Source: Psilocybe azurescens | Lineage: Eukaryota > Basidiomycota > Agaricomycetes > Agaricales > Agrocybaceae | Assembly: GCA_023853785.1 (NCBI GenBank) | Contig: JAJIRX010000893.1 | Coordinates: forward strand, 1-42,673 | Reading direction: 5' to 3' | Length of the DNA stretch: 42,673 nucleotides | Part shown: positions 1-42,272 of the stretch, piece by piece | Layout: each line of letters opens with the position of its first letter | Position numbering within the stretch: the first letter of the stretch is position 1 | Program-made: the position numbers and the translations under genes | The notes under the pieces: model-generated | Told to the model about the DNA's origin: nothing | What the model saw: the letters and a program-made list of their open reading frames with translations, nothing else | Databases searched by the model: none

Positions 1-750
1 CCTGTTTTGCATGCGACAGCGCACCGTGCCCTCTCGGACGGCCGCCCTCCGTTTCGCATATGGTGCCCGTCCCTGCCCCCTTCGGATCGTCATCCCCCTT
101 CATTTTGCATGCGACAGCGTACCGTGCCCTCTCGGATGGCCGTCGCCCTCCGTTTCGCATGCGATACCACGTCCCTTCCCCCATCGGATCGTCACCCCCT
201 CCCCCGTTTTGCATGCGACAGCATCCCGTGCCCTCCGTTTCGCATACGGCACCCGTCCCTGCCCTGGATCGTCATCCCCCGCCGTTTCGCATGCGACAGC
301 ATCCCGTGCCCTCCGTTTCGCCAGGCACCCGTCCCTGCCCCCTTTGGATCGTCATCCCCGCCGTTTCGCATGCGACAGCGCACCGTGCCCTCTTGGACGG
401 CCGTCACCTCCGTTTCGCATATGGTGCCCATCCATCCCCCTTCGGATCGTCACCTGCCCCCATTTCACATGCGGCAGCCACCCCATGCCCTTTGACAGTG
501 CCATTGCCCTCAGTTTTGCATGTCCCACCCATCCTGTCCCATTTCATAGTGCCATTGCCTTCTGTTTTGCGTACTACACCCACCCTGTCCCCTTATGTAG
601 TGCCATTGCCTTCTGTTTTATATACTACATCCACCCTGTCCCCTTATGTAGTGCTGTTGCCTTCCGCTTTGCATACCACACCCACCCCATCCCCTTTTGT
701 AGTGCCATTGCCCTCTGTTTCACACCCACCCTGTCCAATTTCGTAGTGTA
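1..750. repeat. Minisatellite array, ~50-bp units
   Basis: Degenerate tandem repeats fill this stretch. From 1 to about 480 the word GCATGCGACAGC or a variant recurs at 9, 107, 211, 289, 368 and 467 (spacings 98, 104, 78, 79 and 99 bp). Each unit splits into sub-units that begin GTTTYGCAT. From about 497 to 745 the word AGTGCCATTGCC or a variant recurs at 497, 548, 599, 650 and 701, an exact 51-bp period. The two halves share the GTTTTGCAT and TGTCC skeleton, so they look like one family at different stages of homogenisation. Long ORFs cross the array on both strands, but they follow from its composition and I do not call a gene. The array runs off the left edge. Confidence 0.9.
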
Positions 751-997
751 GTTACTTTCCTATACATACATGTTGTAGTTAGCTTTGTTATCTACTATTT
801 TCAAGCTCTCAGAATGTCTGGTTTAGCATAAAACAGAAATTTTCGTCAGGTTGGACTTAGAATATTTTTGAGAACAGCAGTTTCCGGTGAGAAAGGGCTT
901 ATGTAATGTCTGCCCAACTTGACAAGTTGCATGATCTGTTATCTCTTCCTTCATCCACCACCATCTAAGCTCATCCTAGTGACCTAGCCTCCTTACT
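751..997. other. Upstream region of the 998 gene, no gene seen
   Basis: AT-rich single-copy-looking sequence between the minisatellite and the ATG at 998. A short inverted pair (CAACTTGACAAGTTG) lies near 915. I see no convincing TATA box and no ORF. Confidence 0.5.
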
Positions 998-21562: not shown

Positions 21563-24500
21563 ATGGACAGGGAACCCATTCCATGGGATCTTTACAATAA
21601 TAAGAAAAACAAGCCAAAGCCAAAGCCCACATTCTCTTCTTCAACCAGATTCAGAAGGCTTCCTCCTGACGATGAGGACCACGCTCAGAGTCACAGGCCT
21701 CCTGCTAGCACAGGCAGTCTCCCAGGCCCGTCGAAAAAAGCCCACCCAGTACTTTTTTCGCGTTTTATTTATAATCCACTTGTGTTCATTGACATGGCTA
21801 TAGAAACCTCCACATCATAACGTATCCAAACCGTCCTCTGTCGCGTTGACGTTCCAAACCACCGCGGTTCCTTCTAGCAAGCCTCCGTCCACAGGCCCTG
21901 GTCGCCCGCCCGTGCCCTCAAAGGTGCTCTTCGACCCCATAGGAAGGCATCGCTCAGTATGTGCCACACGTCCTCGCTCCCTCGTTTACTTAACAAATCC
22001 AGTCACTTCAGGTCCTCTCACTCGCGAAGGCGCGCTTCGCACCGCGCCCTTCCGGTACTATCTCTTCTCCCACGTTCACATCTACACCTGAACCCAAAGC
22101 AAAAATAAATCATCTGCATTAGCACTCGAGCCACGCGCTCCAGCTCCAGCTGCTGCTGCACAAACCGCGGGTCCGTCCAAATCTGCACCCCGTGAGCGAA
22201 CAGCGATGAAGCGCAGACATTCATCTTCGTCAGATGAAGAACAGGAGGAAGGGATGCAAAAGAAAATAGAGATAGGCAGCGATTCAGATGAGGCGGAGGA
22301 GCGCATGAATCAACCTGTGGTGGGCGTGGCCAGTGATTCAGAAGAGGAGGAGGCGCGACCACAAAATGTTGTGGGGGTGATGAACGATTCGGAAGAAGAA
22401 GAAGAAGAAGAAGAAGAAGAAGAAGAAGAGGAGGAGGAGGAGGAGGAGGAGGAGGAGGAGGAGGAGGTGCGACCACAAAATGTTGTGGGGGTAATGAGTG
22501 ATTCGGAAGAAGGAGGGGAGGAGGAGGAGGAGGAGGAGGAGGAGGAGGAGGAGGAGGAGGCGCGAGAGCAACCTGTGGTGGGCATAATCAGCGATTCAGA
22601 AGAAGGAGAGGAGGAGGAGGAGGAGGCGCGAGAGCAACATGTGGTGGGCATAGTCAGTGATTCAGAAGGAGAGGAGGAAGAAGAGGCGCGAGAGCAACCT
22701 GTGGTTGGAGTAGCCAGCGATTCAGAAGAAGGAGAGGAGGCAGAAGACGCGCGAGAGCAACCTGTGGTAGGAGTAGCCAGCGATTCAGAAGAAGGAGAAG
22801 ACGAAGACGAAGTGGCGCGAGAGCAACCTGTGGTGGGCATAGCCAGCGATTCAGAAGAAGAAGAGGAAGAGGAGGAGATACAGCCGCCCTCGGAACGGGA
22901 AATTGAAATTGGCAGCGACTCGACCGACAATGAAGAGATCCAGCCGCCCCCGAGACGCCAAATTGAGATAGGCGTCGACACAGACGAGGACGAGGATGAC
23001 GAGGAGATACAGCCGCCCTCGGAACGGCAGCAAATCGAGCTAGGCTTCGGGACCAGCGATTCGGAAGACGCGGAGGAGGGAGAGACGGAGGAGCGGGTGC
23101 AGTCGGATGTTGAAGTAGGCAGCGATTCAGGAGAGGCGGAGGTGGAGGAGCAGCAGGGAAAGGAAAGGCAAGCGCGAGTGCGGGCTGCACTGGCGAATAT
23201 GGGCGATTCGGACGAGGACGAGGCGGTGCGGGTCGGCAACTTGGAGGCTGAGACGAATGAGAAGTCTGCCGGTGGTGGTGGTGAGTCTCCGAGGGGGCGG
23301 GTGATGGGGATGGTCAGCGATAATGAGAGCGAGAGCGAGAGTGAAAAGGGCGATGACATGAGTAGGGAAGGGGAGGAGGTGGCGGAAAAGGATGAGGAGG
23401 ACGCGAAGATGGAGGAGGATGCGGACATGAATATGGATATTGCGCATGTGCAGAGCCGCACGCAAACACCAGCGCGGACTCCAACTCCGCCTCGAACCGA
23501 AATTCGCGCTCTAGCGCCAGCTCGGGCTCGAACGCGAACGCGAACCCAATTCCCAGCCCCGGATTACTCCCAACCGGCTTCCTTGGCCTTACCTGCCGCG
23601 CAAACGTCGTCGCAGGCTCGAGCTCCTGCGGGTGTGCACCCCGAATCCGGGTCCTCATCCTCATCCTCACCCGCACCCGCACCTGCATTCCACCTCCAAA
23701 CACAAGCACCACCCCCACTCCCCATCGACGAAACGATCACGCGCGTCGAGGAGGACCTGCGCACCGTGCGCGCGCAGTGGGAGGCGCGGTGGGAGTCCAA
23801 GAGCCTGGCGCAGGTGGGCAGGGAGGCGCGCGCGCGCCGGGGATGGTGGGGCGGGACAGGGCGTGGGAGCGGCAGGTGAGAGAGTGGAAGGAGGAGAGGG
23901 CAGGGAGAGGGAGAGGAGGAGGAGCGCGCACGGGAGGAAGGCGCATGGGAGGAAGAACAACGCGAGAAGGCGCGTCAGGAGGAGCTGGAAAATGAACTAC
24001 AACGCGAGCGTGGGCGCGTCGAGCGCGAGCTGGAATACGAAAAAGCGTGTCGCGCCGAGCTGGAACGCGAGCTCGCACAGGAGCGCGAGAAGGCGCGTCT
24101 GGCGGAGCGCGAGCGCGCGCTGGAGAGGGAGCAGGAGAGGGGCGCAAGATGCAGCATGCGCTGGAGATGCAGCGCGTGCAGAGGTTGCACGCGCAGCGCT
24201 CGCTGCTACTAATGCTAGTGCTGCCAACGCCGCCGCCGCCGAGAAGACGGTGGTGTTCCCGCCGGAGATGGAGGAGCGGATCGCGCAGCGCGTGTTGACG
24301 GTGTTGCAGCCTGCGTTGCTTGAGAGCGCGCGTGTCGAGCGGGAGGCGCAGCGGCTGCGTGAGAGGGACGAGAGGGAGGCCAAGGAGAGGACGGAGCGCG
24401 CAGACAAGTCGCGCGCGAAAGAGGAGGAAGCAGCACGCGATGCGCTGGAGAGTGCGCACGAGGAGAGGGAGCAAGCACGGGACGAGCAGAGGGCGTGGGC

Positions 24501-26109
24501 GAGGGAGGAGAGGGAGAAGACGTGGGAGGCGAGGGAGGAGCGGAGGAAGGACGATAGGGAGCGGGACGCGCGGGAGCTGATGCAGGCGTGGGAGGCTAGG
24601 CAGAGGGAGAGTGAGAGGGTGAGGGAGGAGCAGAGGAATAAGCTCTGGGAGGCGGAGAGGGAGAGCGCGCGAGGAGGCGAGGAAGCGCGAGGAAGAATGG
24701 CATAGGAGGGAGGATGAGAGGGAGAGGAAGCGCTGTGAGGATGAGAAGGCGCGTTTTGGGAATTTCGAGAGGAGGATGGACGAACGCGATGCCCAGCGCG
24801 AGAAAGAACGCGAAAAAAGAACGCGAAGAGGAGAGGGAACGGCTGGTGGGCTTTGAACGACGGGCAACAGAGTTTGAAAGCCGAAGCGAGGCACGACGAG
24901 AAGAAGAGCGCGAGGCTCAAAAAGTGAGGGATGAGAAGAGGGATAAGGATGCGAAGGATGTGTATCGTGCACTTGGGCTTCTGGCGGGGCGGGTGGGTGT
25001 GGTGTTGAACGTGCTTGGTGTGGGCAGCGACGGCAATGTTGCTAGTGCCGGGGTCAGTGCCGCAGCTGGCACAGTTGGACCTGAAGACACGTCGTTTGCT
25101 GCTATCGGGAGGAAGAGGAGGAGACTTGCACGCGGTATTCAGGATGAGAATGTTGAAGTCATCGATGTGGACATGGAGGAGACCTCGTCTTCGCGTCCAG
25201 CACAACCGCGCACTGAAAAAGCGGAAGCGAAGAGTGTGCTGGACAGGTTGACGAGTGTCGAAATGGATATCCAGGAGTGTTTGGAGAGGTTGAGGGATCC
25301 GATGGCTGGGTTTAATGCTGAGCCGCAGGCTTTGGCGCGGGCGGATTCAGAGACGGGCGGTGATGGTATGTTTATTCTGTTATTCTGTTAACTGGGTTGG
25401 CTCATCTTTTATTCTTCAGATTCTGGATCTGCGGGTGTTTCTGCTTCTGCTTCTGGAGGTGAAGTTCCTCTCAAGATTAGGCACGAAATGGGGACAAGTC
25501 CTCTACGATCTGGACAAGCGGCTACACCCAAGACGAGGAAACGGAAATTATTGTGGGAAGTGAATGGAGAGGATAATGCTATTGCCCTCGTTGGTTCTAA
25601 AGTTGACGGCCCTTCAATGGAAACCCATCTCCAGCAAAACCAAAACCACGAGATTCAGAAGCAATTGAAGGACATGATGGAACGCATTGGTGCATATGTT
25701 GACTTTCCCTTTTCGGTTTATTGGTTCCTAATCACGGAATTTTAGAGGGCCTGTCTGACTTGATTTACAAGAATGCGCAGATCTCTCAAAAGCAGAATCT
25801 TGAGCTCAAGGACAAGTTTACGAATATGATGGAGCATATGGGTAATTTGGATCTAATTTTTCGTCCCTCTTTTAGCTGAAGGATGAGTTCTAGGGACCAT
25901 TTCATCGAAGATGGGATCATCGATAGCTCATAAAGGACCTCCTGTAAAACAAAAAGAATACGACGGAGATGTGTCGCCAGATGAAGACGAACAAGACGTT
26001 CAAGAGCAAGCACCAAACGACTTGGACGACGTTTTTGGCCCGCTAATCGTCAACTCCTCACCTTACGGGATGCACGGACCGCCACAGGCGACCAAAAAGA
26101 ATTTACCCG
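21563..26109 (+). CDS. Acidic poly-SIM coiled-coil nuclear protein (5' part, possibly of a larger gene)
   Basis: ATG 21563 starts MDREPIPWDLYNN. Phased exons: 21563-21748, 21882-21956, 22012-22054, 22133-25365, 25420-25689, 25746-25841 and 25894-26109. Domains: Pro/Ala-rich start and a KRRH basic spot; an acidic array (22264-23140) with about eight VVG[VI]xSDSEE motifs and several IEIGSDS-type motifs; a Glu/Arg coiled coil (about 23760-24960, with a block EKTVVFPPEMEERIAQRVL); NVEVIDVDMEE near 25155; short helical exons (LKDMMERI, FTNMMEHM). The motifs fit phosphorylatable SUMO-interacting motifs (hydrophobic core plus CK2-type SDSEE). The coiled-coil exon changes frame about six times between 23840 and 24820, mostly at homopolymers. 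The last exon ends in phase 1 at a GTATGT donor, so the gene continues. I know no named homologue; a SUMO-binding role is inference. Confidence 0.65.
22264..23140 (+). repeat. Tandem phospho-SIM repeat array with GAA/GAG microsatellite
   Basis: Protein units [PN]VVG[VI]xSDSEE occur about eight times, each followed by a Glu run and often AREQ. A second group reads (K/E/Q)IE[IL]G followed by Ser/Asp-rich acid. DNA units are about 60-100 bp long. A pure GAA then GAG tract lies at about 22398-22468. Such arrays change length easily. Confidence 0.85.
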
Positions 26110-26986
26110 GTATGTTCCTTTTCCCTTTTCAGAGTCCGTTTTGTGGGCACACCTGTGAGTTAAATGTAATGCTGATTGTGTTCTTCTTTTTCTTGTTTCA
26201 TATTCTTTTTTTGCCTTTCTATATCTTTTTATTCACTTTGCCATTTCTTTGATGGAACAACTTTTCTATTTACCCCAAATTTTTGATCTATTTCTCTATT
26301 TTTGGACTATTTTTCTCTCAAATCGGGACATGCGCATCATTGCGCCACCCCTCGGCTACATCAAAACTCAACTTTCTTTTCTACTTCCGTCACTATTCAA
26401 CTTGCCTTCGCGCGGTTTTTCGGTTACACCTTACCTTTGTATTTGTTCGTTCGTTCTGTGTTTGTGACTATCGGGGCGCACTGATCTTGTAAAATACTGC
26501 TTGCTCTAACTGCGGTTTCTTTGCATTTGTCATCACAAACATTGACCACTTTCTTCGCCGTTTATCATCCATGCTCTGCCGCGCTGTCGATGCCTATGCC
26601 TATGCCGCCGCCACCGCCTCCTCTAATGCCGTCCATGTCGCACTCGGCACGTCCAACGATCGCGGTCACACCACCGACACCGCCGCCGACGCTAACCCAC
26701 GCGCCGCCAACATCGACACACCTGACTCAACCTAAATCGACTCTTCCCATGCCACCGCCGTTACCTCATGCGTCCACCCCGCCTGCATCTGCCCCGTCTC
26801 CGTCTCCGTCTCCTTCTCCCACGTATGCGCATACACCCACGCTCACGACCACCGAAATCCTGACGCACCTCCTGCCCTTCCTAACGCCCGTGGCCGTCCC
26901 GCTCTCGTGGGATCTGGGCGACGATGTCGTGCTGCGGGCCATGTTTGCGGATTTGCTTGGGGATCCGATGCTGTTTGGGGGCACAG
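26110..26986 (+). other. AG-free zone: candidate 877-nt intron or 5' region of the next gene
   Basis: From 26160 to 26984 (825 nt) there is no AG dinucleotide on this strand, although the opposite strand and the flanks are full of them. It starts about 50 nt after a GTATGT donor (26110) and ends at CACAG (26982-26986). Donor phase and acceptor phase agree: the last base G of 26109 plus AT makes GAT, which is in frame with the long ORF. Branch-type words CTAAC lie near 26505, 26691 and 26880, and CTGAC near 26722 and 26858. The first half is T/C-rich. The second half is also an open frame (ATG 26590) whose Ser, Arg, Lys, Gln and Glu codons all avoid AG. Confidence 0.6.
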
Positions 26987-29900
26987 ATGTGAATGGAGGA
27001 ACGGTGGAGAAGAGCGCCGCGCCGGGTGATGCGGGACGGGAGGCTGATGGACGGTCTGCGAAAGGCAAGGGGCGAGTGAGAGATGTGGACGTGGACGTGG
27101 CTATGGATGTGGCTATGGATGATGTGGTGCAGGAGGAAGAGAACAGGACTGCGGATGGTGTGGTGCAGCAGGAAGAGAACAGGACTACGGATGATGTTCG
27201 CGTGGGGCTTCCAGACGAGAGCTCGCTACCGCAGCTGGAGTCGACGCCGCGCTGCGACGTGCCTCCCGACACGGCGAAGAAGAGTGCGCATACACCTACG
27301 GCGACCACACGCACGAGCACGAGATCCGAGTCCAGAGCCGGATCCCGGCCCCTTCGGAAATCGTCCACGGGCCAATTTTCGCCTGTAGACTGGTCGAAAA
27401 CGAGGGCTGTGGCGAACGAGGACGCTCTGGTGCTGAACCTGAGCCCCAACGCCAAACTCGTCCTCGGGCCCCCATCCGCAGTCGCAGTGCAGAGGCGCGC
27501 GTCGAGTCCTAATCCGAATCCCAGCCCGACGAAGGTTCTTGTCACATCGCCATCCGTGGGTGGAAAACCGAAACCGAGCGCAGCGACCACGCCTCCGCGG
27601 GCGTTGGCCGCGAGCCGGTCGTACACGCTGCCGCCGCCGATGGAGGGCTCGATTGCGGCGCTCAGGGAGGTGTCGCTGGGCACTGCGTATACGGACACGT
27701 ATGTGTACGGCGATGCGCTGAGCAGGGATGGGCGGAGCTTTGGAGTGGGTTCGGGAGATGAGAGACTGGTCATGGGTGCCGATGCGGGTGAGAGGATGCT
27801 GAGCCCGGAGAGTGAAGAAGAGAGAGATGAGAAGGTGGATGAGAGGGTGGATGAGAAGGTGGATGAGAAAATGGATGAGAAAATGAACAAGAAAATGAAC
27901 AAGAAAATGAACAAGAATATGGACAAGAAGATGAACGAGAAGATGGATGAGGTGGATGAGAAGATGGGTGACAATGAGGACGAGAAGGTGGACGAGAAGG
28001 TGGATGAGAAGATGGACGAGAAGATGGATGAGAAGGTGAATGAGAAAATGGATGAGAAAATGGATGAGAAAATGGACGAGAAAATGGACGAGAAAACGGA
28101 TGAGAAACCGGATGAGAAGATGGACGAGAAAATGGATGAAAAGATGGTAGAAGACAGTGCTCGCGCCGGATTGAACTCGGTGGCTTCGGTGTCTAAAGCC
28201 TTGACAAGGGCTTTGACGATAGGAAGTGCTATGACGGAAAGGACGACGTCAAGCACATCCTCGCTCTCGACCTTGACCTCTCTTACTTCTACGCCGTCCG
28301 CGGCTGTATCTGTCCTTGGACCTGAAATGCACTCTCCGCCTGCATCACCTGCATCGTCTGTGCCGTCGCCTGTTATCGATTTGCAAGACGTCAAACTCGG
28401 GCCTCACAGCAAGCAAACGAGCCTAGAGCCGGGTTCAGCTACTCAACCCTCCGATGTAGTTGCGCCATTATCGATATCGCATTCTTCCTCGACGACAACG
28501 ATATCTACAGCGACGCCCTTCCCGGGTTCTCAGTCGCAATCGACAGAGGATGACGAAGCCGTTGTGCAGAGCCTGGTGATGGTGGGCTTGCAGGAGCAGG
28601 AAGAGCTGCACGGAGGCGAGGATTCGATGGCCACTGTGCAGGGGATGTATGCGCAGGAACCGACGCCTGTATCCGCTACGCCGCAGAGGGACGATCACAA
28701 CGATGTCATACCTTCTATCCGCTCGTCTCCTGCTGTTGACAAGGGCAAGGCCAGGGCTGTAGATATGGATATGGATATGGAAAGCGAGATGCGCGACGAA
28801 GACGAGGACACGCATATGGGTCAGCCGCTTTTGGGTCAAGCAGAGACTCCCAGTAGTGGGTCGTCTCCGCTGTTCACGTCGCCCTTCCAGCCTCGAGCAC
28901 ACGATGATGTACCACACAACAACAACAACGGCGATGATGATGATGACAACAATATGGATACCGCTACTCTGCCCCATGTCGAGCCTAAAATGGCAGCTGA
29001 GAGTGCCAAATCGCAATCCGACTCTGACGAGCACCCGGAGACGACGCGGATCGTGCAGGCGAAGCGGGAGCTGAACAGTCCTATAACCGTGCCTGCGCAA
29101 TTATCGCATGCGGGGTACGACTATATTCCGTCCGCATCGCCCTCGCCCAGCAGGCTTGCGGGCACGTCTTCGCAACCGGCGACCGCTTCCAAGCCTCTCG
29201 CCGACGACATTGTAGTGGTTGAATTCGACGATCCGCCCCGGACGTCCTTCACGCGCACTTCGCCGCTGAAGAAGAGGATGAGAAAGAAGGGAGAGCGGGT
29301 GAACGCGCTGGCGGCGGTGTCGGCGGCGGCGTCGACGAGTGTCATCTCGATATCCTCCGGGTCCGAGGACGAAGTGCAGCACCCAAAAGCGACGCAGACG
29401 CAGACGCAGAAACAGAAGCAAAAGCAAAAGCAGACGAAGCCCCCGCTTTCGCAGACACCACCGAAGCAACAGCAGCCGAGCGCCACTTTGGAGAACAAAA
29501 GCAGCGCAGTGCGTCCGCGGCCGCGGCCCATTCCTGATGGGCGGCGTAAATCTGCTGTGAAGATCGAGATCTTCGCGCCGCCCCCTGCGGAGGTTGTCGA
29601 TCTCACGACACCTGTGCGCGGTCGCTCTCCTGCGGGCGCTGCGAGTGGCGGCTCTCGACGACGCGCGCTGGGCTCGCCACCTCCTTCGCCCCTGGCGTCG
29701 ATTTCAACGTCCAAGCCCGCTCTGAAGAAACCTGCTGAGAAGGTGCCTGTGCAGGACCAGCCATCGCAGAAGGCCCCCAGTATCAAAGCTGCTACGCCTA
29801 AACCAGAGCCCGCTCCCGAAGGATACTACTCCTCTCCTCTCAGCTCAGCAGAGGATTCGGAAGACGAGGCCATGCCGCCGTCGCTGCCGCTACCATCGTC

Positions 29901-31463
29901 TGCGTTTGACATCGTGAAAAGCACAGCGCGCCTGGCGGCGTTGGACGACGACGACGACGCGGAGATCATCGTCGTCCGGAAGAAAAAGATCGTGCGGGAT
30001 GCACCATCGTCTGCCTCTGGTGCAGGGAGGACCGGTGCGAGCAGCGGCGCGGGCGTCAAGCCCGACCCGGACGCTGATGCTGATGCTGTGGACGGCAGTA
30101 TGGGCGCGGCGAAGACGACGACGCGGATGGCGGAGCTGCTGGCTGCGAAGGGCAAGAAGCAGAGCGCGGCGGCGACGCGGGTGAAGAAGCGCAAACGGAC
30201 GTCGGAGGCGAGCTCGGCCCTTGCGAATGAGGATGCGGGCGGCGGGGCGGACAGCGATGAGGAGGAAGACGCGCAGTACAAGCAGCCGCCTCTGAAGAGG
30301 GCTAAGGCGCGGAGTTCGGCTGCTGCCGCCGCCGCTGAGAAGGATAAGGGGAAAGCGAGGGAGACACGCAGTGAAAGTTTGAAATTTAGGGAGAAGGAAA
30401 AGACGAAGAAGGAGCAAGAGGAGGGCCCGTCGGCGAGATACCCGCACCGTTCGCCGCGCAAAGACCTGTCAAGTATCAGTTCTTCTGGGACGACACCCAA
30501 GAAGAAACGTGCACAGGGCTTGGTGTGGCCGAAGATTGCAAATCCCAATTTTGACTTGGTAAGTTGGTAATTCTCGTGCATATCTGATCTTGCAATTTGA
30601 CTTGCTTTATCTCGTTTGCTTTCATAGTATGTTAAATGCGACTTGTAAGTGCAATACAGTCGATGATTATACTTTTCACTACTCTGATTGCTGACCTGGA
30701 TTATTTGTGGTTGGGCAGGTGTGAAACGTGGTATCATATTGGATGTGTCGGTTTGGGACCTGACGATGTACGCCTGCGGGACACGGAGATATACGAATGC
30801 CCAATGTGCTTGGCGCATATCCCAAAGTGCGTTTCCTACGCCCTCTTTTACTATTTTTCAAATCTGACGGATTTTTCCTTGCCGTTTATCAACCTCAACT
30901 ATTCACAGAGAACGTACGTCTTTTCCCAGTGCCCTCTAAATTTGTGTAACTTATGCTGACCTGAATAATCATCGTAGAATCACCCGCTAAGAAGATCAAG
31001 GACGAAGAAATCAACGGCTCCAATGCACCCTGTGCACGTCCGCATTGCCTTCTCACATACGTCAATAGACGCGGCAAGGGCAGGAAATCGCAACCTCTCG
31101 ACGACTCGTCGTTCGTCGTTGAAGCGTTCGTCGGCCGACATAAGAAGGTCACGGGCGGACATGGCGTCTCGTACGAATATCTGGTCAAATGGCTCAAGTC
31201 AGTGTTTTCCTTCAGTGCTAGCCATGCCTGTTCAACAGATTTTGCTTATTAATCTATTTGTATGATGCAGCTACGGTTATGACGAAGCGACTGTGCAGAC
31301 GATTGCCAGCATGCAGATGTCTAACCCTGGGCCTCTGCTTGAAGCGTTTGAGAAGCAGGCGGCGGCTGAAGGCATCGACCTTGATAACGCGGGCGACACC
31401 GTCCTTCTCCGTGAGGCGGCCGAAGCTGGCTGGACTGATAACCTGGCGTTCGTCAGATCCTAA
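26590..31463 (+). CDS. PHD finger / chromo-like domain chromatin protein
   Basis: Probable histone-mark reader. If a separate gene, ATG 26590 starts a Pro/Thr/Ser-rich N-terminus; if spliced to the upstream exons, coding resumes at 26987. Exons: 26590-30558, 30628-30644, 30719-30826, 30909-30913 (a 5-nt micro-exon), 30978-31197 and 31271-31463. Seen: a helical block (TEILTHLLPFLTPV, LSWDLGDDVVLRAMFADLLG); a 4-residue DEKM/DEKV repeat (27826-28149); SIM-like VISISSGSEDE (about 29340) and VVDLT (about 29597); many Lys/Arg clusters; a PHD half-finger (YVKCDLCETWYHIGC, CPMC); then a chromo-like segment (VSYEYLVKWLNYGYDEATVQ) near the C-terminus. The first Cys pair of a normal PHD finger is not visible. 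The ORF is undamaged over 4 kb, unlike its neighbours. Confidence 0.72.
27826..28149 (+). repeat. 12-bp coding repeat, [MV][DN][EK]K units
   Basis: About 26 units of 12 bp encode a Met/Val-Asp/Asn-Glu/Lys-Lys tetrapeptide. The product is a highly charged helix or flexible spacer between the SIM-containing regions. Units vary (NKKM, DEVD, GDNE), so the array is not brand new. Confidence 0.9.
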
Positions 31464-38270: not shown

Positions 38271-41200
38271 GCCATGACCTCATTGGGAGTCACTGTTGAT
38301 CATGCAATTAACAATAGGCCTGGACCTTATGTATTCAAAGTCCAAGGAAGGTTAACACATCGAGCTGGACCTCTTCTTCCTCAGATTGGTGTTACACCTT
38401 TATATGCTCAGCTATATATTTTTGATCCTGCTGAAGCTCTCAATTTCCGCATGCAGCATCCTGCAAACTCTGGGCTGGATAGAACCACTATGAGCATTCT
38501 TCAAGATATGCTATATCGTTCCCATTCAGTTGCACGACTATACAAGCAAGCATTTGAAATAACACGTAACATGCCTATAGATCAGCAATGCACAATTGCT
38601 CTTCGCTATGAACGTGAAACTGATTGCAGGCGCTATAATGAACCATCAGCTGGATCCAATGAAGTGGCTATAATCCTTCCTGGAGATGGTGATGAAGTAT
38701 ATCCCAATGGCAGAGATATTGTCCTGAGACGAAGAGCTGGAGAAAGGCTGGAAACAATCAGTGAACTGCATCCCCTTTATCTTCCACTTCATTATGTTCT
38801 TCTTTTTCCAACTGGGCAGTTAGGCTGGCATCCTAACATTCCTTTTAATGAGGCTGCAGAAATTGATGATGATCCTCCAGCTGTTGAGCAGGCTCCTAAT
38901 GAGGATCAGGATGAGGATGCTATTGAAGCTCCACGGCCAAAAAAGTGGAAATACATCACACAAACAGAATATTTCCGCTATCATCTTCATCCAAGAGAAC
39001 CAACAAATGAATCTCAACATTTGTTTTTGGCACAAAAACTTCTTCAGGAATTCATTGTAGACTGTTGGGCAGCTTCAGAACAAAACAGATTACGGTGGGT
39101 TAGACAAAATCAGCAGAAGTTCAGAAATGATACACATCAAGGTCTTATGGATGCTGTTGCAGCTGATCCTAATGCTGAAGGTGCCAATGTTGGCCAAAGG
39201 ACTATTTTGCCCTCTTCTTTTGCTGGAAGCACACGAAACATGATTCAGAACTGCCAAGATGCTCTTGCTATCAATCGCTATTTTCATGGAGCTGATTTAT
39301 TTATCACTGCTACTGCCAACCCAAGCTGGCCAGAAATCAAAGAGGCTTCTTCCTGGACAACAGTCTTCTGATCGTCCAGATTTGGTGGTCAGAGTCTTTC
39401 ATGCAAAAATGAAAGAGATGCTCAATGATATTTGTAAAAATGGCATTATGGGTAGAGCAGTTGCAAATGTGTGGACAATTGAGTTTCAAAAGCGAGGCCT
39501 GCCACATATGCATATGATTGTATTTTTGCATCCTGACCACAAGCTTCGCACACCTGAAGATGTTGACAGCCTTATTTCAGCTGAATTTCCAGATAAAGAG
39601 GAAGAGCCAGAACTCTTTGAATTGGTCAAGAAATTCATGGTCCATACTCCATGCAATGGTGATACCGCTGCTCAATGTCATGTGAATGGAAAATGTTCAA
39701 AATGTTTTCCCAAGCCTTATCGTGACCAGACCACTGTCAATGAAGACTCTTATGCAAATCTCAGGAGACATGACACTGGAAAGGAGTTTGACATTGGTGG
39801 TGGAAAAAAGGTTGATAATCGCTGGGTTGTTGCTCACTGCCGTTATCTTATCTGGAAATATCGCTGTCATATCAATGTTGAATCTATTGCTTCTATCAAG
39901 GCCATCAAATATATCTACAAATATGTCTATAAAGGCCATGACCGCATTACTATGCAGTTTGGACGCTGTGAAGATGAGGTCAAGCTGTATCTTGATGCAC
40001 GATATGTTTCTGCATGTGAAGGACTTTTGGTGCATTTTTCACTTCCACATGCATCAAGAACATCCACCTATTGTTTGCCTTCAGATTCATTTACCTGATC
40101 AACAAATGGTTACATGGAATGAAGACCAGGCACTAAATGCTCAGGAGGTTTTGGATCGCAATGCAGGTAAAGACACCAAGCTTACTGCTTATTTCAAAGC
40201 CAATATACAATATGAAGAAGCCAGAAATACTCTTTATCAGGATTTTCCTGCCAAATTTGTCTGGAAGGGAAAGCAGCGCAAATGGGCTCCAAGAAAGCAA
40301 CAATTTGCAATTGGGCGGATGTACTATGCTCATCCAAGTTCAGGAGAGCGCTTTTATCTCAGAACTCTGCTGACCTGTGTCAAAGGTGCTACATCTTTTG
40401 TTGATCTCTGATCAGTTGATGGCATTGTATATGAAACATTTCGGGAGGCCTGTATACATCGAGGACTTTTAGAGGATGATAATGAGTGGAAGCAATGTCT
40501 GGAAGAGGCTGGATATATGGCAAGTGGACGACAACTTCGTAACCTTTTTGTGACTATTCTTCGAGACTGCACACCATCAAATCCTGCTGCACTCTGGGAA
40601 CAATTTAGAGACAAAATTTGTGATGATCTGCGACATGCTCTTATCTCCAAACATATCCAACAAGACCCCACTGAAGCACAAGTGTTTGATTATGGCCTTT
40701 TTCTCATTGACCAACTTCTTCGCACTACCAACAAAAACTTGAAGAGTTTGCAGGAATGCCATTGCCTCAAGAAGATTGGGCTGCTGCTATAGGAAATAGA
40801 TTGATTGCAGAGCAGAGAAACTATGACAGAGACAATCAATCTGTTCTGGCTCAACAGCAAATTCCTACTCTCAATCATGGGCAACATTCAGCATTTGATA
40901 CTATTGTGGCAGCAGTTGAAAGCAAGAGTGGTCAATGTTTCTTTCTTCATGGTCCAGGAGGTACAGGAAAAACCTATGTGTACAACACTCTGTGCTACTT
41001 TCTGCGTGGTGAAGGAAAAATAGTGCTTTGTGTGGCTTCATCTGGCATTGCATCTCTACTTCTTATTGGTGGTCAGACATCACATTCCACCTTCAAAATT
41101 CCTATCAATATTCATGAAGACTCTACATGCAGTATTGGTCGCAGTTCTGATTTGGCAGAGCTTATTCAACGTACTGATTTGGTGATATGGGATGAAGCTC

Positions 41201-42272
41201 CTATGCAGAACCGTTATATTCACGAGGCTGTGGACCGCACATTCAAGGATATCCGTAACTCTGACAAGCCATTTGGAGGACTTACTGTTGTGTTTGGTGG
41301 AGACTTTAAGCAAATTCTTCCTGTTGTTGTGAAAGGATCAAGAGCACAAATTGTTGGAGCATGCATGCAGCGGTCACAACTTTGGGGACACATCAAAGTA
41401 CTCAAGTTGACTGAGAATATGCGTCTGAACACTGCACATGATGAAGAACAGAAATTTGCACAATGACAGTTGGATATTGGTCTGGGAAAACATACAGATG
41501 AATCTGACAACACAACACTTCCTGATCATTTCAAATGTGCCAATAATACTGTTGGATCTCTGATTGATACAATATATCCTGGAATCCAGCGGACCACTGG
41601 GCATGATGACAAATATTATGCTGAGCGGACAATTCTGTGTAGCAGGAATGATGATGTGGATGATCTGAACAAAACTATTCTCAACAAATTTCCTGGAGAA
41701 GAAAAGGTGTTTCACAGTGCTGATAGCATTTTGAATAATCGGGGACATGGTGATGAAGGAATTCTGATGTATCCAGTGGAGTATCTGAACACAATCAACT
41801 GTTCAGGTCTTCCTTGGCCAAGCTTATACTTAAAGTTGGTTGCCCTATTATGATTTTACGGAATTTGAATGCAAGTGAGGGAGTGTGCAATGGATCGAGA
41901 GGGATTGTGACAAGAATGGGAACCGTGTTTTGGAAGTTCGACTATTGACAGGAGATAGAGCAGGGGAGACAGTTTTTATTCCACAGATTGGGCTGACACC
42001 AACGGACACACAAGTTCCATTTGAATTTTGCCGACGACAATTTCCTGTGCGACTGGCATTTGCTATGACGATCAATAAAGCACAAGGACAATCTGTTTTA
42101 CATGTTGGACTAAACCTTATTTCTTCACCTTTGCACATGGACAACTATATGTTGCTATTTCACGAGTAACATCTGTGCACAACATCAAGGCTATTTGGGA
42201 TGAGAGTTCTGGATTAAGTATAACAAAAATATAGTGTACCCTGAAGTTCTTTCTATTGACCATAGTGACTGA
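38271..42272 (+). pseudogene. Helitron Rep-helicase (HUH nuclease and Pif1-type helicase), decayed
   Basis: Rolling-circle transposase. Order: Helitron-like N-terminal domain (38274-39371); Rep core with the metal-binding His pair HMH (39505-39513), a KCFPKPY segment, and the Tyr pair in YIYKYVYKG (about 39910-39936); a linker; and a Pif1/SF1 helicase with Walker A GPGGTGKT (40951-40974), VIWDEAP (about 41184), GGDFKQILP (about 41299) and the late AFAMTINKAQGQS and YVAISRVTS. Breaks: a frameshift near 39347, one near 40026, DL-stop at 40409 (probably CGA to TGA), a shift near 40740, Q-stop at 41464 (TGG to TGA), and shifts near 41815 and 41920. The last coding codons end near 42272. All key catalytic residues survive, so decay is recent, but the copy is not functional. 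Confidence 0.88.

What the first reader, a model, noticed from the sequence alone, without database searches (positions are those of the whole stretch)
26160..26984. 825 nt without a single AG dinucleotide
Reading line by line I find no AG on the + strand between 26159 and 26985. At the local composition two to three dozen would be expected, so chance is very unlikely. The zone begins after a GTATGT donor and ends exactly at an acceptor-like CACAG. It crosses from T-rich sequence into an open frame, where Ser, Arg, Lys, Gln and Glu codons all avoid AG and G-rich stretches still lack it. AG exclusion between branch point and 3' splice site is known, but usually over tens to a few hundred nucleotides.
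Basis: seen in the sequence. Interest (0 to 1): 0.93.

Follow-up and report, generated by a model that had tools for sequence, protein, structure and literature searches.

The report
AG-free intron hiding a first exon
An 825-letter stretch of a fungal chromatin-protein gene contains no "AG" at all, likely because it is an intron whose cutting machinery would stop at the first AG it meets, while the same stretch also encodes a peptide shared with another mushroom that is predicted to be an alternative start of the protein.

Summary
In detail: no AG from 26159 to 26985. About 25 are expected. The run beats composition-matched windows (minimum 14 AG) and codon-preserving recoding of its coding part (P about 1e-5). 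CT, the opposite-strand equivalent, is near normal, so the effect is strand-specific.

Relatives explain the place. In Cyclocybe, Hebeloma and Gymnopilus models, upstream and downstream sequence form one protein in which the zone's peptide is not detected; the Psilocybe cubensis model is short and begins with that peptide. The last upstream exon (to 26109) has a GTATGT donor. Of 8 AGs tested ahead of it, only CACAG at 26986 is both YAG and opens into the long downstream frame. A branch-like site (CTGAT, 26172) and pyrimidine tract sit at the zone's 5' end.

Best reading: an 877-nt intron of a long isoform, enclosing a predicted promoter and alternative first coding exon of a short isoform. AG is excluded because the first AG after the branch point would become the splice site. 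Human exclusion zones that I saw reach 438 nt. No RNA or relatives' DNA was available; splicing and promoter are inferred.

The parts
26160..26984 (+). 825-nt zone without AG (827 nt counting the flanking G and A)
26110..26986 (+). predicted 877-nt intron of the long isoform, GTATGT...CACAG, in frame (phase 1) with both flanking exons
   Evidence: inferred, no RNA
26110..26115 (+). 5' splice site GTATGT
26155..26160 (+). second donor-like GTGAGT, 45 nt on and in the same phase; its AG is the last before the zone
26172..26176 (+). branch-site-like CTGAT, A at 26175, 810 nt before the A of the acceptor AG
   Evidence: use inferred
26177..26245 (+). T-rich pyrimidine tract after the branch-like site
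26481..26885 (+). seven further CTRAY sites (26481, 26506, 26623, 26692, 26722, 26860, 26881), 501 to 101 nt before the acceptor
26590..26985 (+). predicted first coding exon of the short isoform: Pro/Thr/Ser-rich start, then a segment similar to the P. cubensis N-terminus (TTTEILTHLLPFL...LLGDPMLF); exact start codon uncertain
26982..26986 (+). CACAG: predicted 3' splice site of the long form, ordinary codons in the short form
25894..26109 (+). last upstream exon (DVFGPL motif)
   Evidence: weak match to Hebeloma P0004 (E 0.062 there, 8e-4 uncorrected)
24714..25841 (+). preceding upstream coding stretch, similar to P0003, P0004, P0005
26987..30558 (+). large shared exon of both isoforms
30628..31463 (+). 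five last exons with PHD finger and chromodomain, separated by short introns

Best explanation
The AG-free stretch is likely the branch-point-to-splice-site part of an 877-nt intron (26110-26986) in a PHD/chromodomain gene, and it likely also holds the promoter and first coding exon of a shorter form of the same protein. In the long form, the exon ending at 26109 would be spliced from GTATGT through a branch point near 26175 to the first AG downstream, which is CACAG at 26986. Any AG arising in between would be taken as the splice site and break or alter the protein, so selection would remove AG from the whole interval, codons included. In the short form, transcription would start inside the zone, translation at about 26590, and CACAG would be read as ordinary codons. 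Because the zone has no AG acceptor, its peptide could only serve as a protein start, so the two forms would be mutually exclusive. Shown: absence of AG, strand specificity, open frame, similarity of the peptide to one relative, fused or short models in relatives. Inferred: actual splicing, the branch point used, the promoter, and selection.
For: (1) AG absence is beyond composition and codon nulls while CT is near normal, pointing to a constraint on the transcript. (2) Three relatives' protein models (P0003 Cyclocybe, P0004 Hebeloma, P0005 Gymnopilus) hold upstream-half sequence (E 1e-8, 7e-10, 2e-14). The same proteins hold downstream-half sequence: the stretch after 26986 in P0003 (E 4e-10) and P0005 (E 4e-24), the PHD/chromo part in P0003 (E 3e-53) and P0004 (E 7e-49). 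The zone peptide is not detected in any of these three. (3) P. cubensis P0001 is a short model that starts with the zone peptide (42% over 97 aa, E 1e-17) and aligns on through 26986 with one 2-residue gap. (4) Of 8 AGs tested ahead of the donor, up to 27014, only 26986 and 26998 open more than 200 codons, and only 26986 is YAG. (5) Unspliced, the upstream frame runs into T-rich sequence and stops at 26252. (6) A branch-like site plus pyrimidine tract lies at the zone's 5' end, with AGs at 26131, 26133 and 26158 just upstream, as in verified distant-branch-point exons (PMC1431707, passages). (7) In 7 of 8 short introns of this gene model the acceptor is the first AG after a branch-like site. 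(8) Sde2 and Cactin, which aid branch-point-distant splicing in fission yeast (PMC9508853, passages), have matches in this genome.
Against: No RNA data and no DNA of relatives were available. An 810-nt branch-to-AG distance is about twice the longest I saw (up to about 400 nt); a nearer branch site (101-501 nt) is possible. The local acceptor context (TTTGGGGGCACAG) is poor in pyrimidines. Folding gives no sign that structure shortens the distance (z 0.61; 17 of 20 shuffles fold at least as well). One short intron (25842-25893) seems to skip earlier AGs. The exon before the donor matches only P0004, weakly (E 0.062); P0004 matches the stretch just after 26986 only at E 0.075. The upstream coding part changes frame at least twice among its long ORFs, so the long form may be decaying or misassembled. 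Fused models in relatives could be prediction artefacts; P0005's N-terminal part matches other loci of this genome. The Agrocybe short model has an N-terminus with no detectable similarity to the zone peptide (shuffle P 0.65), so the peptide is supported by one species only. T-rich sequence in this genome can be AG-poor by itself.
Confidence: 0.57

Rival explanations
1. Two separate neighbouring genes: the upstream coiled-coil gene ends before or within the T-rich stretch, and the zone is just terminator, promoter and the first exon of the PHD/chromodomain gene; AG absence is composition, amino-acid choice and chance.
For: P. cubensis and Agrocybe models lack the upstream half. Pro/Thr/Ser-rich N-termini use few Lys, Glu and Gln codons. 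T-rich stretches here can be AG-poor (313 nt).
Against: Even with the amino acids fixed the coding part has P about 1e-5 and composition-matched windows hold at least 14 AG. The upstream exon has a strong donor and no stop before T-rich sequence. Three relatives' models fuse the halves.
Confidence: 0.22
2. AG exclusion is real but serves only the nearer part: a branch point inside the zone (CTAAC 26881 or CTAAC 26506, for example) is used, and the far 5' part is AG-free only because several weak branch sites compete or by chance.
For: Seven further CTRAY sites at 501 to 101 nt from the acceptor, two of them CTAAC after 26600; shorter distances are easier for the spliceosome (PMC9508853, passages).
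Against: The AG-free run begins just before the first branch-like site (26172), not before a later one.
Confidence: 0.13
3. The zone is AG-free to protect the short transcript's promoter and first exon from capture by read-through transcripts of the upstream gene carrying an unpaired donor; the fusion splice is noise, not a product.
For: Unpaired GTATGT (26110) and GTGAGT (26155) donors stand just upstream.
Against: The first AG is still an in-frame YAG that joins both coding halves, and relatives' models use such a fusion.
Confidence: 0.08

Closest known systems
AG dinucleotide exclusion zones / distant-branch-point exons (human PTB exon 11, its nPTB equivalent, alpha-tropomyosin exon 3; PMC1431707, passages seen)
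   Same: Long AG-free run ending at an acceptor AG, branch-like site plus pyrimidine tract at its 5' end, AGs just upstream, link to alternative transcripts.
   Different: 825 nt here against 381 (PTB) and 438 nt (nPTB) there; in a fungus whose other introns in this gene model are 52-82 nt; the zone contains coding sequence and a predicted promoter.
Alternative first exons / intronic promoters (general knowledge, recalled)
   Same: A first coding exon inside an intron of a longer transcript, sharing downstream exons.
   Different: Here the exon runs directly into the shared exon with no donor between, lies wholly between branch-like site and acceptor, and is written without AG.
Branch-point-distant 3' splice sites dependent on Sde2, Cay1/Cactin and Tls1 in Schizosaccharomyces pombe (PMC9508853, passages seen)
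   Same: Same step, second-step use of a far AG; Sde2 and Cactin matches exist here.
   Different: There only about 40 of about 5250 introns have 30 nt or more between branch point and acceptor; here hundreds. Dependence not testable here.
Stwintrons (nested fungal introns; recalled)
   Same: Complex fungal intron removed by the spliceosome.
   Different: No AG inside the zone, so no internal GT-AG intron can end there.

Membership tests
[quoted passage not shown]
   827 nt
AG exclusion zone with distant branch point | Branch-site consensus and pyrimidine tract near the 5' end of the zone | tested here: met
   CTGAT 26172 and T-rich tract; seven further CTRAY sites also lie in the zone
AG exclusion zone with distant branch point | Normal AG frequency upstream of the zone | tested here: met
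   48 AG in 25400-26159, 0.95 of expectation; AGs at 26131, 26133, 26158
AG exclusion zone with distant branch point | The AG at the end is used as 3' splice site | not testable with these tools
   no RNA; frame and relatives' models agree
AG exclusion zone with distant branch point | The distant branch point is used | not testable with these tools
   needs lariat mapping
Alternative first exon | Conserved coding sequence that starts a protein and continues into the shared exon | tested here: met
   P. cubensis P0001; one species only, Agrocybe not
Alternative first exon | Own promoter and transcription start | not testable with these tools
   no 5' end data
Alternative first exon | Absent from the alternative, longer transcript | tested here: inconclusive
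   zone peptide not detected in P0003-P0005, but these are models predicted by others
Stwintron | Internal GT-AG intron nested in the outer intron | tested here: not met
   no AG in 26160-26984

The most novel reading that the evidence does not exclude
Probability: 0.5. Interest if true: 0.85.

Novelty: new variant of a known kind. Interest (0 to 1): 0.7.

Why it matters
It would nearly double the longest AG exclusion zone I saw described and give a natural test of how far the spliceosome can search from branch point to AG in a fungus with short introns. It would also be a sequence constraint in which splicing of one transcript fixes the codons of another. Scanning genomes for long AG-free runs that end in frame at a downstream exon could find more.

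Tried and rejected
Separate-gene reading: after the P. cubensis hit my first model was that CACAG is only coding and the zone is plain promoter plus exon. The fused Cyclocybe, Hebeloma and Gymnopilus proteins turned me from it; it is kept as the main rival.

RNA structure bridging the intron: no signal (z 0.61). Tandem repeats as cause: seven rows, short arrays only, in 26000-27100. Second copy in the genome: none by DNA; by P0001 protein only a weak hit with 5 stops on C255 besides this locus. Relatives' DNA: the search tool holds no relatives of this genome; viral contigs gave no relative and plasmids no match. Upstream-half homologue search: none at E <= 0.001. The query was rich in coiled coil and only the 7981 candidates sharing most words were scored, so it missed P0003-P0005, which the other search had found. 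Forced-AG dipeptides ([KEQ][ADEGV] cannot be coded without AG): the P. cubensis N-terminus has none before residue 113 (8.2 expected at the density of the rest), but shuffles of its own composition give none in 46% of cases, so this is only compatible. Agrocybe N-terminus as a homologue of the zone peptide: not supported.

Full report
What is there. The five relatives found for this gene are all from mushroom fungi: Psilocybe, Agrocybe, Cyclocybe, Hebeloma, Gymnopilus. The AG-free run is as reported: AG at 26158-26159, AG at 26985-26986, none between.

Is it chance? Base shuffles expect 25.3 AG (minimum 11 in 20,000 shuffles) and block shuffles 23.1 (minimum 5 in 20,000). Recoding the 132 codons of 26590-26985 with the codon usage of the following exon gives 8.8 AG on average and an exact chance of none of 1.0e-5. 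For the T-rich part, the A-to-G rate of pyrimidine-rich stretches elsewhere in the window, 0.145, gives 6.8e-6. Of 155 overlapping composition-matched windows from 8 sequences, the lowest held 14 AG. AG-free runs of 567 and 418 nt exist in the sampled genome, but in tandem-repeat sequence, the first with 4% A. A T-rich stretch with almost no tandem repeat has 313 nt. So T-rich sequence can be AG-poor here, which weakens the non-coding half of the argument but not the coding half. CT stands at 0.88 of expectation. A mutational bias acting on both strands would deplete both, so an effect at the RNA level is the natural guess.

What the surroundings are. Downstream, an ORF of 1349 codons (26521-30570) continues through five introns of 69, 74, 82, 64 and 73 nt into a PHD finger and a chromodomain. 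Upstream on the same strand lie acidic and coiled-coil coding stretches. The last upstream exons can be joined as 24894-25365, 25420-25689, 25746-25841 and 25894-26109. Joined through 26110-26986 to the downstream exons they give 1722 codons with no internal stop. Eight AGs from 26132 to 27014 were tried as acceptors for the 26110 donor. Those at 26132 and 26134 give introns of 23 and 25 nt and stops within 10 codons. The one at 26159 gives a frame of 103 codons through T-rich sequence. 26986 and 26998 stay open for more than 200 codons. 27009, 27012 and 27014 stop within 22 codons. Of the two open ones only 26986 is a YAG.

What relatives say. Upstream-half sequence matches P0005 (E 2e-14), P0004 (E 7e-10) and P0003 (E 1e-8); the last upstream exon matches only P0004, weakly (E 0.062). 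The same proteins carry downstream-half sequence. The 304 residues after the junction match P0005 (E 4e-24) and P0003 (E 4e-10), and P0004 only at E 0.075. The PHD/chromo part matches P0003 (E 3e-53) and P0004 (E 7e-49); P0005 gives no match there and seems to end before it. The zone peptide is not detected in these three (shuffle P 0.18 to 0.39; E 1.9 or worse). P. cubensis P0001 starts with the zone peptide (42% over 97 aa, E 1e-17), shows no significant match to the upstream half, and aligns on through CACAG with one 2-residue gap. Agrocybe P0002 is also short, but its N-terminus is not detectably similar. These models are predictions by others; fusion or truncation artefacts are possible. 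The N-terminal part of P0005 matches other loci of the window's genome.

Mechanism. Verified human distant-branch-point exons show the same anatomy: branch site and pyrimidine tract at the 5' end of an AG-free zone, AGs normal upstream, and an inserted AG taken as the splice site (PMC1431707, 12 passages). Here CTGAT begins 62 nt after the donor and is followed by a T-rich tract. Seven other CTRAY sites lie 501 to 101 nt from the acceptor. With several possible branch sites, AG would have to be absent from the first one onward, which is what is seen. Long branch-to-AG spacing weakens splicing in fission yeast, where Sde2, Cay1/Cactin and Tls1 promote it (PMC9508853, 12 passages). Sde2 and Cactin matches exist in this genome. 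No structural shortening is evident.

Literature. 'AG exclusion zone' with 'alternative first exon' gave 0 papers. 'Distant branch point' with 'alternative promoter' gave 3, 'AGEZ' with 'fungi' 9, 'AG exclusion zone' with 'fungal' 3. Broader searches were seen as capped listings. In the titles and abstract starts listed I saw no zone of this length, in a fungus, or containing a first exon; subscription literature is largely absent from that library. Beyond listings I saw passages of three papers: PMC1431707, PMC9508853 and PMC2991248 (exclusion zones of 101 to 291 nt in the passages shown).

Verdict. A distant-branch-point intron whose AG exclusion zone also houses an alternative first exon is the best account. 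It is inferred, not shown, and rests on one species for the conserved peptide and on predicted models for the fused form.

Noticed in passing
window 22206-25391: Long ORFs of the acidic/coiled-coil part change frame at least twice (22206-23879, 23632-24705, 24714-25391) in GA-rich DNA: decay, introns or assembly indels.
   Followed up: partly
window 1-812: 737 nt without AA (1-737), with 347 nt without GG and 318 nt without GA nearby (474-820, 495-812): repetitive ORFs at the contig's left end.
   Followed up: no
window 25842-25893: A short intron needed to keep the frame seems to skip TTTTAG and two more AGs after a CTAAT site; use of the first AG would give an early stop.
   Followed up: partly
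window about 27800-28260: Run of DEKM-type repeats inside the large exon; AG-free for 359 nt on the other strand.
   Followed up: no
window 38274-41466: ORFs resembling Helitron-type replicase/helicase pieces (recalled resemblance, no domain search made).
   Followed up: no
L019 3059-3371: T-rich stretch of 313 nt without AG in another contig, hardly repetitive; could be a second, smaller case or plain composition.
   Followed up: partly
G000 C41:28421-28796 and C582:316314-316689 (L026 for C41): Two alike matches to the N-terminal part of Gymnopilus P0005, whose source name mentions an RFX-type winged helix: this relative's model may be chimeric, or the assembly holds two copies of another gene.
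   Followed up: no
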